From: Spirochaetaceae bacterium | GTDB lineage: Bacteria; Spirochaetota; Spirochaetia; B11-G9 | Reading direction: 5' to 3' | DNA length: 64,000 nt | Assembly: GCA_015493635.1 (NCBI GenBank) | Contig: WGCU01000032.1 | Coordinates: forward strand, 1 to 64,000 | Part shown: positions 137 to 18,445 of the stretch, piece after piece | How the letters are laid out: each line of letters begins with the position of its first letter | How positions within the stretch are numbered: the first letter of the stretch is position 1 | Translations under genes and position numbers: made by a program | The notes under the pieces: generated by a model | What the model saw: the letters and a program-made list of their open reading frames with translations, nothing else | Told to the model about the DNA's origin: nothing | Database searches by the model: none

Positions 137-1120
137 TGCGGGAATCAACACCATGTCCTCATTAAGAAAGCAGGTTATTTAGAGAAAAATGAAAGATTCT
201 ATATAAATCCGGGGAAGCGGACCAGTGTTGATGGTTCACTTATCCAGGCAATTCCTTTTGCATCAATCAGGACTGACGGAAGAGAGGAGGACTGGGAAGG
301 TATTCCTCCTTTAATTGTTGATAGTGTTGGAGATAATATTAATGCTCCCGGCGGAACTGACATAAGAGAAGTTTTTGCGGCTACTGACGGAATATATCTT
401 TATACAAAAATAAATCTTGCAGACGGTGTCCCATCCACAAAACCATTGTATTATGCAATAGGTATGCAATCTTTAGATAATTCTTTTTCACGATTATTAT
501 TTACTCAATATAATGATCATGGACATTGGGTGACTGGGGTGGATAAGTGGACTAATAAATCTACTGGGCAGCATAAGCAGATTGGAAAGGGATTTATCAG
601 ATCACGGGGTGAAATTATTGAAGCACGTTACAAGCTTAAAGATATAGGAATTGAACTGGATCAGGCTTTACTAATCAACGCATGGGATGATTCCTCCGGG
701 ACGAGCTATGACAATACCTCTCAATCAAAGATAGTTTGGACTAATCACTCACAAGTCTTCACTGTAAAAGGTAAAATAAGGGGGATAAGAATTGATGAGA
801 GAAGTCTGTCTCCTATGTTGCTGAGCCCCCCTGATGAAGGTATATTAAAAATATCTCTTTACAATAAAAATAGTGAAAAAATAGGGATCGAATTCAAGCC
901 TGGTAAAATAAAGGTTGGCTATCATCGAATTAAGGAAAGGGATTACGCTTTTAATGTTTTCAGTCCAATAATACAGAAAGCTGAAGGATATAGTGGCAAT
1001 TTAGTAAGTGGAAAGCTCAATATTTTTGAAAACAATGATGATTGGATTACTGGCTATTATAATTTTACTTCGAATGCCAATGATACCATCTCCGGATTTT
1101 TCTCTGTAAAAAAGAGATGA
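137..1120 (+). pseudogene. 5'-truncated gene, secreted-type beta-sandwich protein
   Basis: One frame stays open from the stop at 134-136 to TGA at 1118-1120 (about 327 codons), but no ATG or GTG with a ribosome site begins it. The nearby ATGs (136, 153, 189) are in other frames and stop at once. The first possible initiator is a TTG at 446, which would cut through the conserved-looking part. The segment near codons 45-60 reads DGREEDW, then GIPPLIVD, which resembles CBM9/DOMON-like beta-sandwich domains; this is a resemblance only. I read it as the 3' part of a gene that lost its 5' end. The stop codon TGA is formed at the junction with the repeat element that follows, so the original C-terminus may also be altered. 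Confidence 0.55.
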
Positions 1121-1269
1121 AAGGTATCAATACCCCAGGGTAAACCCTGGAACCAGTCCGCTATTGCGGCCTGTTCCGCAGCAAGCTGCGGGGTGTTTTA
1201 ACCTTTCGTTCTCTGCACTCGATTGAGAACGGGACCACCAAGCTGTTCCGTTCCACTCACTCGTTTGAG
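1119..1269 (-). mobile_element. ~150-bp structured repeat, copy 1
   Basis: This is the same element as at 9618, 12514, 14759 and 17082, here inverted. Read on the minus strand it starts CTCAAACGAGTGAG after ATT and ends CCTTTC before AT. The loops differ from the other copies but the stems are kept. The hairpin CCGCGGC/GCCGCGG of other copies is CCGCAGC/GCTGCGG here. The hairpin CCAGGGC/GCCCTGG is CCAGGGT/ACCCTGG, and GGAGCGGGA/TTCCGTTCC becomes GAACGG/CCGTTC. The long closing stem is less perfect than in copies 3-5. It touches the preceding reading frame, whose TGA uses its terminal bases. Confidence 0.85.
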
Positions 1270-9617: not shown

Positions 9618-9770
9618 CTCAAACGGAGTGAGTGGAGCGGAACAACTTGTTGGTTTCTGCCCTAAGCGAGTGCAGAGAACGAAAGGTTGAAATATCCCGC
9701 GGCTCTGCCGCGGAATAGGCCGCTATAGCGGCTCAGGGAAAGGGTTTACCCTGGGGTATTGAAACCTTTC
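9618..9770 (+). mobile_element. ~150-bp structured repeat, copy 2
   Basis: The element is preceded by TTATT and followed by AT. It starts CTCAAACGGAGTGAG and ends AAACCTTTC. Its hairpin 3 is AGGGT/ACCCT where copies 3-5 have AGGGC/GCCCT, a paired change. Its right end lies inside the 3' end of the EamA gene: the last codons and the TAA stop (9746-9748) of that minus-strand gene are element sequence. Confidence 0.88.
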
Positions 9771-10654
9771 ATGGTAACAGCCTGGGATACAAACATACCG
9801 CTCAGCATGAGAGCACATCCGGCTGCGCTTCGAAAATCCATTACCTCACCAAGGAAAATCCATCCGCCTACAACAGCAAAAATCCCTTCCAGACTGAGAA
9901 TAATGGCAGCATGGGCCGGGTGAGCTTCCTTCTGGGCAAAAATCTGCAGTGTGTATGCTATCCCTACCGAAAAGAAACTTCCGTAGAAAATGGGAACCCA
10001 GGCCTGAAGAATGGTCTGTACCGCTACCGGTTCAATAAACCCTGCTGTAACAAGGCTCAAGACTCCGCAGAAAAGGTACTGAATCACTGCCAGCTTCAGC
10101 GTATCCACCCTGGGAGAGATAACTGCCATGGCAAGGACATGGGCCGCCCAGAAGAACGCGCTTAAAAAGACGAGAAAATCCCCTTTCGCAATGGAAAATC
10201 CCCCCCGTATACTCAGAAGGTACAGACCGGTAATGGAAAGAACCGCCCCGACCCAGCGGCTGGTGCTTGTTTTATGGCCTAGAAAAATACCAAGAAAAGG
10301 GACAATAACCACGTACATTCCGGTTATAAACCCAGCTTTACCTGCTGTAGTGTACACAATTCCCGCCTGCTGCAGGGATGCCCCCAGAAAAAGAAAGCTC
10401 CCTGCCAGTGCTCCGTACAGAAAAAGCTGTTTTGCCGTCCCCCGCTGCGGTTTGGCCTGCTTGCTGCGTTTTTCTTTTCTGTTGAAGTAGAGAATAAGGG
10501 GGGCAATGGAGACGGCTCCCAGTATAAAACGGACACCGTTATAGGTAAAAGGACCGATATACTCCATTCCAACCCGCTGGGCGGCAAAAGCGAGACCCCA
10601 GATAACGGCTGTGGACAGGAGCATCATGTCATTTTTAAGTACACGTGTGTTCAT
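9746..10654 (-). CDS. DMT-superfamily (EamA) transporter with element-derived C-terminus
   Basis: About 302 residues with ten hydrophobic segments arranged as two EamA repeats, the fold of RhaT/YdcZ-like drug/metabolite exporters. Typical motifs are AVIWGLAFAAQRVGMEYIGP near the start and EGIFAVVGGWIFLGEVM in the last quarter. The substrate cannot be read from sequence. MNTRVLKND at 10654 is preferred to an ATG at 10687, which would add a non-membrane leader. The last residues, KGFNTPG, and the stop codon are encoded by repeat copy 2, so the natural C-terminal tail has been replaced. All ten membrane segments seem intact, so the protein may still work. It diverges from the HAD gene. Confidence 0.85.
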   Translation of the reverse strand: MNTRVLKNDMMLLSTAVIWGLAFAAQRVGMEYIGPFTYNGVRFILGAVSIAPLILYFNRKEKRSKQAKPQRGTAKQLFLYGALAGSFLFLGASLQQAGIVYTTAGKAGFITGMYVVIVPFLGIFLGHKTSTSRWVGAVLSITGLYLLSIRGGFSIAKGDFLVFLSAFFWAAHVLAMAVISPRVDTLKLAVIQYLFCGVLSLVTAGFIEPVAVQTILQAWVPIFYGSFFSVGIAYTLQIFAQKEAHPAHAAIILSLEGIFAVVGGWIFLGEVMDFRSAAGCALMLSGMFVSQAVTMKGFNTPG

Positions 10655-11606: not shown

Positions 11607-11706
11607 GGGAAGGATTCCCCCTCGCTTCGGAAAGCCTGAACCGCCCCTTCTCCGGGCTCGGTTACCCTCCGCCCGCGGGGCGGGGCTGTTCCTCCGCTCC
11701 CCCCTC
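11607..11706 (+). repeat. GC-rich repeat B, copy 1
   Basis: A ~90-bp segment (from the CCCCCTCGCTTCGG stretch to TCCGCTCCCCCCTC) closely matches 18353-18445. It starts with a hairpin of G-run and C-run (GGGGG AAGGATT CCCCC) and holds the near-palindrome CCGCCCGCGGGGCGG. It carries no reading frame that is kept in the other copy. A homopolymer of nine G precedes it and may be length-variable. Confidence 0.7.
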
Positions 11707-11794: not shown

Positions 11795-11838
11795 TTGACA
11801 GAACGGATAACATGGCGGATCTTTATTGTCAGGAGGCG
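11795..11838 (+). promoter_or_regulatory. repeated leader with -35-like box and strong ribosome site, copy 1
   Basis: TTGACA (11795-11800) is followed by AACATGGCGGATCTTTATT and CAGGAGG. Very similar sequence stands at 13883 and 17813, before unrelated or decayed genes. The -35 box is convincing but no standard -10 is obvious (GATCTT lies at the 17-bp spacing). The CAGGAGG serves the Uma2 gene at 11845. Confidence 0.5.
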
Positions 11839-11844
11839 TGACCC

Positions 11845-12429
11845 ATGGAGACATCACCTGAAAAGCTCAATAAAAAATTTACCTATAAAGACTACCTTAC
11901 CTGGCCGGAAGGTGAAAGATGGGAGCTTATTGACGGTGTGGCTTATGATATGAGCCCGGCTCCTTCAAGAACTCATCAATTTATATCGTCATATTTTACC
12001 AGTACTTTTTTTGATTATTTTAAGGGAAAAGACTGTAACGTTTTTGCTGCCCCCTTCGACGTACGGTTTCCCGGCGGGTTTAAGGCGGATGAGGATGTAG
12101 ATACCGTAGTTCAGCCTGATATCTCCGTCTTTTGTGATGAAAAAAAGCTGGATGACCGTGGGGGCAATGGAGCCCCGGATCTGGTTGTGGAAATACTTTC
12201 TCCCGCAACAGCCGCCAAAGATTTAAAGGAAAAGTTTATGCTCTATGAAAGAGCAGGGGTTAAAGAGTACTGGGTTGCGGACCCGGCCAATAAAACCCTT
12301 ATTGCTTTTATTCTGGGAGATGACGGTACATACGCCCGGGGTGTGGTCTATGCCGGTAAGGATGTCTTGAAAACTGCCCTTTTTGAAGGTTTGGAAATAA
12401 AGATGGAAGAGGTGTTTGAGGAACAGTAA
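11845..12429 (+). CDS. Uma2-family putative endonuclease (PD-(D/E)XK fold)
   Basis: The 194 residues have the complete Uma2/DUF820 layout: YKDYLTWPEGERWELIDG at the start, DMSPAPSRTHQ, the restriction-endonuclease-like core VVQPDISVFCD, then DLVVEILSPAT with the acidic catalytic residues, LKEKFMLYERAGVKEYWVAD with the lysine, and a short C-terminal strand. Family members are thought to be nucleases, though the biology is largely unknown; they are abundant in cyanobacteria and some spirochaetes. AGGAGG lies 8 bases before the ATG. This is the only intact plus-strand copy among at least four related genes and remnants between 11.8 and 18.4 kb. Confidence 0.88.
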   Translation: METSPEKLNKKFTYKDYLTWPEGERWELIDGVAYDMSPAPSRTHQFISSYFTSTFFDYFKGKDCNVFAAPFDVRFPGGFKADEDVDTVVQPDISVFCDEKKLDDRGGNGAPDLVVEILSPATAAKDLKEKFMLYERAGVKEYWVADPANKTLIAFILGDDGTYARGVVYAGKDVLKTALFEGLEIKMEEVFEEQ

Positions 12430-12433
12430 AATT

Positions 12434-12513: not shown

Positions 12514-12666
12514 CTCAAACGAGTGAGTGGAGCGGGACAACTTGTTGGTTCCGTTCCCGAGGGAGTGCAGAGAACGAAAGGTGTCAATACCCTGCGGCTC
12601 TGCCGCGGAATTGGCCGCCATAGCGGCTCACGGAAAGGGCTCTGCCCTGGGGTATTGACACCTTTC
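12514..12666 (+). mobile_element. ~150-bp structured repeat, copy 3
   Basis: The element lies between ATT (12511-12513) and ATT (12667-12669). A long hairpin is possible from GGAGCGGGA (12529-12537) to TTCCGTTCC (12549-12557). The closing stem GAAAGGTGTCAATACCC (12576-12592) pairs with GGGTATTGACACCTTTC (12650-12666) over 17 bp. Between the arms lie three small hairpins: GCGGC/GCCGC, GCCGC/GCGGC and AGGGC/GCCCT. It sits between two convergent Uma2 3' ends; the paralogous junctions at 16608 and 18047 lack it. Confidence 0.9.
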
Positions 12667-12673
12667 ATTCCGG

Positions 12674-13372: not shown

Positions 13373-13786
13373 TTACCCCAGAAACCGGTAGACGGTAATA
13401 AGCGCTGTAACAAAAACAAACCCCGAGGTTATCAAAGCAGTCAGCCTGTTGAACCGCTTGTCAATAACCTCAAATCGTCTGTCAATAGCTTCGAACCGCT
13501 TGTCAATAACCTCAAATCGTCTGTCCATGGTCTCAAACCGCTTGTCTGAAGCTTCTAATCTTGCATCTATCCGCTTAAATCCTTCCTCCATCCGGAGTGC
13601 AATCAGTTCAACGTTCTTGCTCAGAGTTCTTATGGATTCTTTTAACCCGTCATGCTCTGCAGCATGCTCCTCCTTTCTGACCGTGGAAGAGAGAAGCAGA
13701 AATATCCCTCTTTTAAGTGATTCAGGGTTTTTAACTTCTACAGCATCGGTAAATTCACCGGTAATAATTTCCGCAAGATCGCTCAT
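13373..13786 (-). CDS. heptad-repeat coiled-coil protein with C-terminal membrane anchor
   Basis: About 137 residues. After an N-terminal segment (SDLAEIITGEFTDAVEV) the chain becomes a coiled coil with regular seven-residue repeats of the form D(K/R)RFE(V/A)I, encoded by DNA repeats of 21-42 bp (about 13458-13545). One hydrophobic segment ends the protein (LTALITSGFVFVTALITVY), giving a tail-anchored shape. Such proteins resemble the 'Hemolysin XhlA/DUF1640-like' coiled-coil class, but I cannot assign a function. The ATG at 13786 gives a better distance to AGGAGG than the ATG two codons upstream. Copy number of the heptads could vary by slippage. Confidence 0.65.
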   Translation of the reverse strand: MSDLAEIITGEFTDAVEVKNPESLKRGIFLLLSSTVRKEEHAAEHDGLKESIRTLSKNVELIALRMEEGFKRIDARLEASDKRFETMDRRFEVIDKRFEAIDRRFEVIDKRFNRLTALITSGFVFVTALITVYRFLG

Positions 13787-14758: not shown

Positions 14759-14911
14759 CTCAAACGAGTGAGTGGAGCGGGACAACTTGTTGGTTCCGTT
14801 TCCGAGGGAGTGCAGAGAACGAAAGGTGTCAATACCCCGCGGCTCTGCCGCGGAATAGTCCGCCATAACGGACTGGGTCCAGGGCTTTGCCCTGGGGTAT
14901 TGACACCTTTC
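14759..14911 (+). mobile_element. ~150-bp structured repeat, copy 4
   Basis: The element is flanked by ATT on both sides. The closing stem is the best of the five: 14821-14838 pairs perfectly with 14894-14911 over 18 bp. Inside are CCGCGGC/GCCGCGG (14837-14853), AGTCCG/CGGACT (14857-14874) and CCAGGGC/GCCCTGG (14879-14895). The middle hairpin changes on both arms compared with GCCGC/GCGGC in copy 3. It starts about 45 bp after the SDR stop and is inserted next to a decayed Uma2 gene. Confidence 0.9.
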
Positions 14912-14914
14912 ATT

Positions 14915-15050: not shown

Positions 15051-15989
15051 ATGGCGTTTGAACATGATAGAAGATACAAGCGTATATTCTCGTATCCGTA
15101 TTTCCTGCAGAAGCTACTTGAGTCTTTTGTACATGAGTCATTTATAAAAAATCTTGACTTTTCAACTTTAAAACGTGTTGATAAGAGTTTTATTAATTCT
15201 GACTTTCAGGAAAAGGAATCTGATCTCATATTTACCATTCAGTTTAAGAAGAAGACTATATACATATTTCTGCTTCTGGAATTTCAGTCTACTATGGATA
15301 AAATGATGACAGTAAGGTTTTTACGATATATCATGGAATTGTATGAATCCTTTAGGAAAATACCGGAAACAGGCCTATTCCCTGCTGTTTTCCCTGTACT
15401 TCTTTATTCAGGGGATACTTTATGGACTGCAAAAGAGGAAATAAGTTCTTTAATAGAAAAAAGTATCCCGAAAAGATATATTCCCATGTTTAGATATTAT
15501 CCAATATTTGAGAACAAAATACCTAAACAAAGTCTTGAAAAGATACAGAACGCTGTATCAGCCATATTTTATATTGAAAATTCAAGCCCTCAAGAACTGG
15601 AGCAGGAAATAGATATACTTATGGATATAATAAAAGACGAGGACCTGTCAGTAGTAAAAGAGCTTGCTGGATGGTTTAACAACTATTTATCAGGGGTAAG
15701 TGAAAGTATTGATAAAGAAAGTATTTCACAGAAACTGGAAACATTAATGGAGGTAAAAGCAATGTTTGCAACAAAACTAAAAGAGCATGATGAAAAACTT
15801 ATCAAACAAGGGATAGAAAAAGGGATGGAGAAAGGGATAGAAAAAGGGATAGAAAAAGGGATAGAAAAAGGGATAGAAAAAGGGATAGAACGAACCGCCT
15901 TGAATATGCTGGAAGCTGGTATTTCTGTTGAAATTATATCAAAAACTACCGGTTTAACTGAAAAAGAGATATTGCTTCTTTCTGAATAG
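15051..15989 (+). CDS. Rpn-family (Transposase_31-like) nuclease with GIEK tandem repeats
   Basis: The 312 residues match the Rpn/PF04754 family, PD-(D/E)XK proteins whose E. coli members raise RecA-independent recombination by cutting DNA. The N-terminus has FEHDRRYKRIFSYP, and the nuclease core reads KESDLIFTIQFKKKTIYIFLLLEFQS, with Asp, Glu and Gln in the usual places. Near the C-terminus seven copies of GIEK/GMEK/GIER (15810-15893) join the core to a short helical tail (AGISVEIISKTTGLTEKEI). Such repeats and tails are normal for the family. The frame is intact. No good ribosome site precedes ATG at 15051, so expression may be weak. The next gene, a broken Uma2, begins 32 bases later. Confidence 0.82.
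   Translation: MAFEHDRRYKRIFSYPYFLQKLLESFVHESFIKNLDFSTLKRVDKSFINSDFQEKESDLIFTIQFKKKTIYIFLLLEFQSTMDKMMTVRFLRYIMELYESFRKIPETGLFPAVFPVLLYSGDTLWTAKEEISSLIEKSIPKRYIPMFRYYPIFENKIPKQSLEKIQNAVSAIFYIENSSPQELEQEIDILMDIIKDEDLSVVKELAGWFNNYLSGVSESIDKESISQKLETLMEVKAMFATKLKEHDEKLIKQGIEKGMEKGIEKGIEKGIEKGIEKGIERTALNMLEAGISVEIISKTTGLTEKEILLLSE
15810..15893 (+). repeat. seven 12-bp tandem repeats in the Rpn gene
   Basis: The unit GGGATAGAAAAA occurs seven times, units 2 and 7 being variant. Since 12 is a multiple of three, gain or loss of units alters linker length without shifting the frame. Confidence 0.95.
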
Positions 15990-16021
15990 AACTATCATCC
16001 TTGATTCAGGAGGAGCGGCCC

Positions 16022-16603
16022 ATGGAGATATCCCCAAAGAAACTCAATAGGAAGTTTACCTATAAAGATTATCTTTCCTTGCCCGAGGGCGAAAGATGGG
16101 AACTCATTAACGGTGAGGCCTATGATATGAGTCCGGCACCAAGCCGGAGGCATCAAGATATTACCGGAGCTTTGTTTGTCTTGTTGAAGAATTATTTAAA
16201 GGGAAAGGAGTGCAGAGCAACACGGCTCCCTTTGACGTACGTCTTCCCGGCGGGTTTAAGGCGGACGAGGATGTGGAGACTGTAGTTCAGCCTGATATTT
16301 CCGTCTTTTGCGATGAAAAGAAGCTGGATGAGCGCGGGGGTAACGGAGCTCCGGATCTGGTTGTGGAGATTCTTTCTCCCGCAACGGCCTCCAAAGATTT
16401 AAAGGAAAAGTTTTTTCTCTATGAAAGAGCAGGGGTTAAAGAAGTGGGTTGTGGACCCTGTAAACAAGACTCTTACCGTTTTTATTAGAGGAACCGACGG
16501 CAAATATGCCCGGGGTGTGGTCTATGCAGGCGAAGATGTACTAAAAACTTCCCTTTTCGAAGGACTGGAGATCAAGATGGAAGAGGTATTCGAAGAACGG
16601 TAA
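16022..16603 (+). pseudogene. Uma2-family gene broken by two frameshifts
   Basis: This is a close copy of the intact gene at 11845, starting MEISPKKLNRKFTYKDYLSLPEGE with AGGAGG before the ATG. The frame is lost at about 16205-16215, where one base is missing before CCCTTTGACGTACG, and shifts back at about 16433-16442, where two bases are missing in the GTACTGGG codons. Together the three lost bases restore the first frame, which runs to 16603. The catalytic core between the two shifts is read in the wrong frame, so no active protein is expected. It is a very recent inactivation, as the rest is hardly changed. Confidence 0.82.
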
Positions 16604-16798: not shown

Positions 16799-17827
16799 AT
16801 GAGAAGAATAGTCAATCAAATATCTGACATATTTGTTCGTTTTCTGCTGGGTTTGGAAGAGAATAAGCCAATTCTTATTGATTTTATAAACACTATTCTT
16901 CTTGATTCGGAATTTGATCCGGTGGTAGATCTTAAAATACTGAATCCTTTTAATTTAAAAGAAGGGTTAGATGATAAAGAAAGTATTCTTGATGTTAAAG
17001 CCGAAGACAAAGCAGGAAGGGTATTTGACGTAGGAATTCAGGTAATAGGAAATGCTTCTTTTGTAAAACGATCACTTTATTCTCAAACGAGTGAGTGGAG
17101 CGGGACAACTTGGTTCCGTTCCCGAGGGAGTGCAGAGAACGAAAGGTGTCAATACCCCGCGGCTCTGCCGCAGAATAGTCCGCCATAGCAGCCTGGGTCC
17201 AGGGCTCTGCCCTGGGGTATTGATACCTTTCATTACTGGGCAAAAAATTATCACAGCCAGCTAAAGGAAAGTGAATACTACAGGATACTTATGCCGGTGG
17301 TGTGTATAAACATACTGGATTTTGTAATTTTTCATGATATTAAAAAAGCCCGCAGTTGTTTTATGGCTACCGAGAAGAACAATCCTGAATACGTATTAAG
17401 TGAAGACTTTCAGATACATTTTTTTGAGCTTGAGAAAATGGATGTAGAAGGTAGCAAAACATTTAAAAACAGGCTTGAGAAATGGGCTTTCTTTTTTAAA
17501 CAAGAGGGTTTTTTGGATGAGGAGGAAGAGATGCAGGTATTATTAAAGAATGACAAGGTAATGGAAAAAGCACATGAATCCTATAAAAAATTTACAGCGA
17601 ATGATAAAATGCTTAAGATGTATGAAGCCAGAGAAAAACGGATACGAGATGAAGTCAGCAATATTGACTATGCCCGTGAGCAAGGCATTGACAAGGGGAT
17701 TGAGGTAACTGCAGTAAGAATGCTCAAAGAAAATGTTGAAATTTCTTTTATTTCCAAAGTTACTAATATTTCAGAGGAAAAACTGCTTGAGCTCAAGAAT
17801 AAAATTTGGAAATTGACAGAACGTTGA
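16799..17827 (+). pseudogene. PD-(D/E)XK nuclease-family transposase gene split by repeat copy 5
   Basis: The first part (16799-17081) encodes MRRIVNQISDIFVRFLLG, the core with DVKAEDKAGRVFDVGIQV (Asp, Glu and Gln of the PDDEXK_2 fold) and GNASFVKRSLY. The second part (from 17235, same frame) continues WAKNYHSQLKESEYYRILMP and INILDFVIFHD, then a helical tail to 17827. Removing the element gives one frame of about 291 residues, the usual length for this family, with the expected YYWAK at the join. Within the element a stop (17186-17188) ends translation. Internal start sites could still yield the second part (for example ATG 17291), but without the catalytic core. Confidence 0.85.
17082..17231 (+). 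mobile_element. ~150-bp structured repeat, copy 5, inside the Rpn-like gene
   Basis: The element is flanked by ATT (17079-17081 and 17232-17234). Removing it with one ATT rejoins the codons for SLYYWAK. It is three bases shorter than copies 2-4 (ACTTG then GTTCC, missing GTT). The closing stem has one G-T wobble. This is the clearest proof that the element inserts into occupied DNA. Boundaries are uncertain by two or three bases, because TTATT on the left and AT on the right recur at every copy. Confidence 0.92.
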
Positions 17828-17854
17828 ACATGGTGGATCTTTATTATCAGGAGG
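17813..17854 (+). promoter_or_regulatory. repeated leader, copy 3
   Basis: TTGACAGAACGTTGAACATGG, GGATCTTTATTA and CAGGAGG match the leader at 11795. The first bases overlap the end of the Rpn-like gene (its last codons and stop at 17825-17827). The ribosome site now leads only into a decayed Uma2 gene. Confidence 0.5.
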
Positions 17855-18141
17855 CATCAATCGGTTTTGGTATCTCTTGCCAGGATTATTTCCGATATTA
17901 CTGATAAAGGCCAGTGCGAAACCTACGTAGCCCCTTTTGATGTAAGATTCTCCGATAAAGAAGATAAAGAGATAACAACCGTTATTCAGCCGGATATCTC
18001 CGTATATAATGGTCTATAGACTGGGAAGTGACGGTATATTTGAAAAACCGGACTACTATCGGATAGATGAGGACGTTTACAGCAAAGTACTCCGGGATGC
18101 TCAGGTCCCCGTTTCATCTTTGTTGAAAGAGAAAGCTGAGT
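17855..18141 (+). pseudogene. Uma2-family gene remnant with internal deletions
   Basis: One frame, read from about 17863, gives VLVSLARIISDITDKGQC, then YVAPFDVRFSDKEDKEITTV and QPDISVYNGL before a stop at 18017-18019. A second frame from ATG 18010 gives MVYRLGSDGIFEKPDYYR, ending SSLLKEKAE at 18141. The N-terminal quarter and the catalytic stretch (normally DLVVEILSP) are gone. This copy preserves the complete C-terminus of the subfamily whose fragments lie at 12434 and 16608. Confidence 0.7.
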
Positions 18142-18343: not shown

Positions 18344-18445
18344 TCCGGGGGAAACCCCCTCGCTGCGGAAAGCCTGATCCGCCCCTTTATCCGGGCTCGG
18401 TAACCCTCCGCCCGCGGGGCGGGGCTGTTCCTCCGCTCCCCCCTC
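18344..18445 (+). repeat. GC-rich repeat B, copy 2
   Basis: GGGGGAAACCCCC forms an opening hairpin, then CTCGCTGCGGAAAGCCTGA and TCCGCCCC, and a GC-rich block that matches 11624-11706 nearly base for base. Both copies begin with a G-run/C-run hairpin and end TCCGCTCCCCCCTC. It lies about 100 bases before the large exported protein. Confidence 0.7.

What the first reader, a model, noticed from the sequence alone, without database searches (positions are those of the whole stretch)
16799..17827. Repeat copy 5 splits an Rpn-like nuclease gene, proving insertion
Taking out 153 bp (element plus one ATT) rejoins a frame of ~291 codons with the family-typical SLYYWAK at the join. Flanking ATT is present on both sides of copies 3, 4 and 5, and AT follows all five. 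This looks like a short target duplication or a strict target preference. Because the gene on each side of the insertion is otherwise open, the event is recent.
Basis: seen in the sequence. Interest (0 to 1): 0.72.

Follow-up and report, generated by a model that had tools for sequence, protein, structure and literature searches.

The report
Short IS200-type hitchhiker splits nuclease gene
A 153-base piece of DNA with no gene of its own has jumped into a nuclease gene of a spirochaete; it belongs to a widespread family of hitchhikers that probably borrow an IS200-type transposase, and a single base inside each copy predicts the target sequence it landed next to.

Summary
Copy 5 is a 153-bp insert (17082-17234) that splits a 291-codon Rpn/PDDEXK_2 gene. 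Rejoining the flanks restores one domain (169 bits, against 68 and 81 for the halves), and an uninterrupted orthologue lacks exactly these 153 bp. Empty sites in two other genomes prove precise insertion elsewhere too. The family has at least 40 copies in this genome and occurs in 13 of 395 Spirochaetia genomes sampled.

It is not a target-duplicating transposon. It is a palindrome-associated, transposase-free element (PATE) related to IS200-type insertion sequences: no terminal inverted repeats, covarying subterminal hairpins, a fixed right end TTTCATT, insertion 3' of T-N-ATT, random sequence to the right. An IS200-type transposon in a genome with near-identical copies has the same target (TTATT), the same end (TTCATT) and a left hairpin identical over 23 nt to elements of this genome. 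The first base of an internal NATA guide pairs with target base 2 in 90 of 117 copies (permutation mean 44; within genomes p=5e-5), as in IS608.

New here: the family, its hairpin accretion and its natural guide-target covariation. 'Recent' is only weakly supported, and no cognate transposase was found in this genome.

The parts
16799..17827 (+). Rpn-family PD-(D/E)XK nuclease gene (PF12784 / TIGR01784), split by copy 5
   Evidence: Halves match profile 5-86 and 88-229; rejoined 6-229 at 169 bits; TIGR01784; 84% identical uninterrupted orthologue L140
17082..17234 (+). Copy 5 of the transposase-free element (153 bp), right end ...CCTTTCATT
   Evidence: Sequence; absent from L140; alignment with the other copies of this genome
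17077..17081 (+). Left cleavage/target pentamer TTATT, pre-existing target, 3' of which insertion occurs
   Evidence: Logo over 76 copies; TTATT or TCATT present in empty sites L232, L088, L096
17151..17154 (+). Left guide tetranucleotide AATA, 5' of the left hairpin; first base pairs with target base 2
   Evidence: Guide-target covariation 90/117; rule as in IS608
17155..17173 (+). Left-end hairpin CCCCGCGGCTCTGCCGCAG, shared with the left ends of IS200-type transposons
   Evidence: Covarying helix 5; motif found outside the repeats only in IS200-type left ends and one truncated copy
17199..17215 (+). Right-end hairpin CCAGGGCTCTGCCCTGG
   Evidence: Helix 7
17230..17234 (+). Right cleavage site TCATT, element-borne
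   Evidence: Logo; same in IS200-type relatives
1116..1269 (-). Copy 1 (target TTATT at 1274-1270 on the minus strand)
9618..9773 (+). Copy 2
12514..12669 (+). Copy 3
14759..14914 (+). Copy 4

Best explanation
Copy 5 is one copy of a transposase-free mobile element of the PATE kind, a non-autonomous relative of an IS200-type (IS200/IS605 family) insertion sequence. Most likely a Y1 HUH transposase (TnpA) supplied in trans bound its subterminal hairpins on single-stranded DNA, excised the top strand as a circle, and inserted it 3' of TTATT in the Rpn gene without target duplication. The target is chosen by base pairing: a four-base guide, NATA, just 5' of the left hairpin pairs with the T-N-ATT target (guide base 1 with target base 2, guide base 2 with target base 1). 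Shown here: the precise insertion, the fixed ends, the asymmetric target, the hairpin covariation, the guide-target covariation and the shared ends with an IS200-type transposon. Inferred: TnpA in trans, the single-stranded circle, and which TnpA acted in this genome.
For: Precise empty sites: L140, L238/L232, G055 L082/L116/L122 against L088/L096. Asymmetric target: T-N-ATT on the left in 73 of 76, fixed TTTCATT right end, random right flank. No terminal inverted repeats; seven helices with 13 pairs changed on both sides (shuffled mean 7.9, 0/500) and 92.6% of cells paired. An IS200-type transposon in G287 (tnpA P0001, NF033573 at 124 bits; solved relatives ISDra2 and IS608 TnpA) sits 3' of TTATT, ends in TTCATT, and has the 23-nt AAATACCCCGCGGCTTGCCGCGG of G000 elements just before tnpA. 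Relatives in G264, G260 and G369 end in GTTCATT where the right end could be read, most of them next to TTATT. That hairpin (up to 2 mismatches) in 2.1 Mb occurs only in the repeats, in IS200-type left ends and in one truncated copy. Guide base 1 complementary to target base 2 in 90/117 copies, permutation mean 44, max 64; within-genome mean 77.8, max 87, p=5e-5; IS608 uses the same pairs A+16:T-3 and A+17:T-4. In G287, 40 of 50 copies lie on the positive-GC-skew strand, the direction expected for insertion into the lagging-strand template (mechanism).
Against: No close tnpA homologue in this genome; most other carriers also lack one. No strand bias in this genome (19 against 20), and in G287 the bias falls to 21 of 30 (p=0.04) when neighbours are merged. 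27 of 117 copies break strict guide pairing (13 of them are G:T wobbles). Which guide serves the right end of the short element is not resolved. Transposition itself was not observed.
Confidence: 0.88

Rival explanations
1. A classical MITE moved by a DDE transposase with a 3-bp target duplication (ATT).
For: ATT on both sides of most copies; net gain of one ATT at the empty site.
Against: No terminal inverted repeats. The flanking triplet is nearly always ATT, not a variable duplication. Target conservation is one-sided and extends to -5. The C of the right-hand TCATT is independent of the left flank. Guide-target covariation.
Confidence: 0.04
2. A REP/REPIN-like repeat moved by a REP-associated tyrosine transposase (RAYT).
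For: RAYT-like Y1 genes occur in several carriers, and a few lie near copies.
Against: RAYT genes are mostly not flanked by the element. No GT[AG]G guide. The ends and hairpin match an IS200-type TnpA element instead. P0001 scores 124 bits as IS200 but 22 bits (below cut-off) as REP_Tyr.
Confidence: 0.05
3. A small self-splicing or RNA-level element (intron-like), so the split gene still works.
For: Covarying RNA-like fold; sense orientation in the Rpn gene.
Against: No Rfam match. Other copies interrupt genes in antisense orientation (GGDEF gene in L213, PrsW gene in L024). Too short for known self-splicing introns (background knowledge).
Confidence: 0.02

Closest known systems
PATEs (palindrome-associated transposable elements) of Haloquadratum, PMC3119063; PATE-like sequence of Halanaerobium, PMC7290912
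   Same: No terminal inverted repeats, near-terminal palindromes, no target duplication, too short for a transposase, ends related to IS200/IS605 elements
   Different: Spirochaetia; hairpin modules multiply inside the element (111 to about 330 bp); guide and target covary between copies
IS608 and ISDra2 (IS200/IS605 family), PMC5934647
   Same: Insertion 3' of a 4-5 base target; guide 5' of a subterminal hairpin; guide base 1 pairs with target base 2 (IS608 AAAG/TTAC; here AATA/TTATT, GATA/TCATT, CATA/TGATT)
   Different: The element here carries no tnpA or tnpB
IS605-specific stem loops on Borrelia plasmids, PMC2775950 (abstract only)
   Same: Spirochaete DNA with degenerate IS200/IS605 remnants and stem loops
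   Different: Reported on Borrelia plasmids next to lipoprotein genes; its sequences were not compared here
BOX elements of Streptococcus pneumoniae (from general knowledge)
   Same: Modular repeats with variable numbers of internal hairpin units
   Different: Not compared by sequence; a resemblance recalled from memory only

Membership tests
PATE / non-autonomous IS200/IS605 element | No terminal inverted repeats | tested here: met
   Left end CTCAAACG/CCCCAACG against right-end reverse complement AATGAAAGG
PATE / non-autonomous IS200/IS605 element | Subterminal palindromes near both ends | tested here: met
   Helices 1-2 and 5-7, covarying
PATE / non-autonomous IS200/IS605 element | No target duplication; insertion 3' of a fixed 4-5 base target | tested here: met
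   T-N-ATT left only; empty sites. A 3-base ATT duplication cannot be told from an element-borne ATT at a single site; the five-base asymmetry decides
PATE / non-autonomous IS200/IS605 element | Ends shared with a TnpA-encoding IS200/IS605 element | tested here: met
   G287 IS200-type element and relatives
PATE / non-autonomous IS200/IS605 element | Guide 5' of the hairpin pairs with the target (left end) | tested here: met
   90/117, p=5e-5 within genomes
PATE / non-autonomous IS200/IS605 element | Guide for the right cleavage site | tested here: inconclusive
   GATA 5' of the right hairpin in the IS200-type relatives; placement in the short element unclear
PATE / non-autonomous IS200/IS605 element | Lagging-strand template preference | tested here: inconclusive
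   G287 40/50, merged 21/30; this genome 19/39
PATE / non-autonomous IS200/IS605 element | Mobilised in trans by TnpA | not testable with these tools
   Needs a cleavage or transposition assay
REP/RAYT system | RAYT gene flanked by the repeat | tested here: not met
   Most RAYT loci without copies
IS91 (Y2 HUH) derivative | Y2 transposase present in high-copy genomes | tested here: not met
   No PF04986 in G000, G287 or G055
DDE MITE | Terminal inverted repeats and variable target duplications | tested here: not met

The most novel reading that the evidence does not exclude
Within one family of transposase-free elements, single-base changes in the internal guide have re-set the insertion target in nature (AATA to TTATT, GATA to TCATT, CATA to TGATT), so copies across Spirochaetia are a natural record of guide-directed retargeting; and the elements grow by multiplying hairpin modules while keeping both ends.
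Probability: 0.75. Interest if true: 0.62.

Novelty: new member of a known kind. Interest (0 to 1): 0.52.

Why it matters
It explains a high-copy repeat in several spirochaete genera that has no Rfam entry and turned up in none of my literature searches. It gives clean empty sites and a likely mover. It also offers a natural test of the DNA-guide code of IS200/IS605 transposases, which has been re-set by design in the laboratory (IS608, PMC5934647): here about 120 natural insertions show guide and target changing together. The element also breaks genes (Rpn nuclease, BrxB, a DGC-domain gene, a GGDEF gene, an IS200 tnpA).

Tried and rejected
Rfam search at gathering and at E<=5: nothing for the repeat. 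The resident IS200 copies of this genome (C6, C65) as movers: their ends differ (GGTGGTTGTTGAC). RAYT association: looked promising in G055 and G003, but 1 of 8 long RAYT loci in Sphaerochaeta-like genomes had a copy nearby. IS91: absent from the three high-copy genomes. Larger 1.7-1.8 kb 'copies' as autonomous versions: they are IS110-family elements inserted inside the hairpin. GC-skew bias in this genome: none. Intron reading: antisense insertions exist. In-window paralogous flank of copy 3 (18031-18140) as an empty site: too diverged to be clean. Phage and plasmid collections: no match.

Full report
What is there. Copy 5 occupies 17082-17234 and splits an open frame running from 16799 to 17827. 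The two halves match PF12784 at profile positions 5-86 and 88-229, with practically nothing lost between them. Joined without the 153 bp they give one domain at 169 bits and a TIGR01784 'Rpn family recombination-promoting nuclease' match at 150 bits. A same-family genome (G002, locus L140) carries an uninterrupted orthologue, 84% identical, aligned on both sides of the insert and lacking exactly 153 bp. Its site reads CTATACT rather than TTATTAC, so the target pentamer is not shared by that relative.

The family. This genome holds at least 40 copies, the others 75-94% identical to copy 5, nearly all about 160 bp. In 395 Spirochaetia genomes a 23-nt right-end pattern occurs in 13 genomes of several families, with zero hits for the reversed control. 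Named carriers include Spirochaetales M55B182, Tobar13.5m-G43 and Sphaerochaeta UBA6084. Genome G287 has 83 right-end hits, and the 41 scored copies are 96-100% identical to the query copy, so its copies probably spread recently. In G055 and G009 the same ends enclose extra hairpin modules, some repeated in tandem, giving 111 to about 330 bp.

Proof of mobility beyond copy 5. In G287 a copy sits inside an IS200 tnpA gene. The paralogue in the same genome reads GTTAGCAATTTTATTGCCAATCAG where the filled gene reads GTTAGGAATTTTATT[154 bp]GCCAATCAG. In G055 a larger repeat exists with the element (L082, L116, L122) and without it (L088, L096); the empty site is CTCTCATT|TCAAGTCC. Other copies rejoin to intact BrxB and DGC domains, and interrupt a GGDEF gene and a PrsW gene in antisense. 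That excludes an intron.

Ends and target. Over 76 copies the left flank is T-(T,C,G)-A-T-T in 73, the right end is TTTCATT, and the right flank carries at most about 0.2 bit per position. There are no terminal inverted repeats. The C of the right-hand TCATT does not depend on the base on the left, so the right pentamer belongs to the element. This is insertion 3' of a fixed target without duplication, the rule of the IS200/IS605 family (PMC7290912). An explicit structure of seven helices is 92.6% paired on 18 divergent copies, with 13 pairs changed on both sides (shuffled mean 7.9, none of 500 as high) and a sharp drop when slid by one column. The terminal helix TTCTC/GAGAA in this genome becomes TTCCC/GGGAA in Sphaerochaeta-like genomes.

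The likely mover. In G287 an IS200-type element (L227, about 1357-1970; tnpA is P0001) lies 3' of TTATT and ends in TTCATT. P0001 is IS200/IS605 TnpA (124 bits against a cut-off of 55), and its closest solved relatives include the ISDra2 and IS608 transposases. Directly upstream of tnpA is AAATACCCCGCGGCTTGCCGCGG, identical over 23 nt to elements of the window's genome. Relatives in G264, G260 and G369 end in GTTCATT where the right end could be read, most of them sit next to TTATT, and the closer ones have AATA-CC-hairpin at the left and GATA-CC-hairpin at the right. Across 2.1 Mb of held sequence that hairpin occurs 31 times in the repeats and otherwise only in such left ends and in one truncated repeat copy. 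The window's genome has no close tnpA relative; its two IS200 loci have other ends.

The guide. In IS608 the guide AAAG selects TTAC through A+16:T-3 and A+17:T-4, that is, guide base 1 with target base 2 and guide base 2 with target base 1 (PMC5934647). Here the four bases before the left hairpin are NATA. In 117 copies guide base 1 is the complement of target base 2 in 90 (103 with G:T). Shuffling guides among copies gives a mean of 44 and a maximum of 64 in 20,000. Shuffling only within genomes gives a mean of 77.8 and a maximum of 87, p=5e-5. AATA goes with TTATT, GATA with TCATT, CATA with TGATT. Because the pentamer is present in the empty sites, it is target and not part of the element.

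Strand. In G287, 40 of 50 copies have positive GC skew along their top strand (p=2e-5), the direction expected for insertion into the lagging-strand template (mechanism in PMC6006769). Merging copies closer than 20 kb leaves 21 of 30 (p=0.04). In the window's genome there is no bias (19 of 39), perhaps because its copies are older and have been rearranged; this remains a weak point.

How recent. Both halves are open, and against L140 dN/dS is 0.07 and 0.09 (dS is high or saturated), which mostly reflects time before insertion. One change matters: the E of the ExQ motif, present in all six homologues aligned, is G here. The gene may have begun to decay after, or been inactive before, the insertion. 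'Recent' is plausible but not dated.

Verdict. The insertion is real. The element is a new family of PATE-type, IS200-related hitchhikers. The most interesting part is the natural covariation of guide and target.

Noticed in passing
L123 (G035:C10) and L116 (G055:C183): IS110-family elements (VYIGIDVHKDTYALS) are inserted at the tip of the CCCCTTGGGG hairpin of the element in two different genomes, so IS110 seems to target this hairpin.
   Followed up: partly
window 17030-17041: The Rpn gene has VGIQ where all six aligned homologues have E at that position (VEIQ type), a loss of a conserved active-site residue.
   Followed up: partly
window 11829-12430, 16001-16603, 17840-18140: Three related Uma2-family (PF05685) gene copies or fragments in a row; the 16001 copy appears frameshifted.
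   Followed up: no
window 11644-11706 and 18383-18445: A second, GC-rich 63-bp repeat, 95% identical, not part of this element.
   Followed up: no
window 15792-15899 and 13451-13555: In-frame 12-bp tandem repeat (GIEKGIEK) at the end of a Transposase_31 gene, and a 21-bp tandem repeat in a neighbouring region.
   Followed up: no
L017 and L018 (G000:C12 and C11): Two contigs start with the same 118 bp and a copy of the element, then diverge: recombination through the repeat or an assembly fork.
   Followed up: no
L228, L233, L234, L235: A conserved 273-306 aa RAYT-like Y1 gene lies beside a dprA/smf-like gene in several Sphaerochaeta-like genomes, mostly without flanking copies: possibly domesticated.
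   Followed up: partly
G030 and G050: About 37-40 PDDEXK_2 matches per genome in two single-contig Spirochaetia genomes, many of them partial.
   Followed up: no
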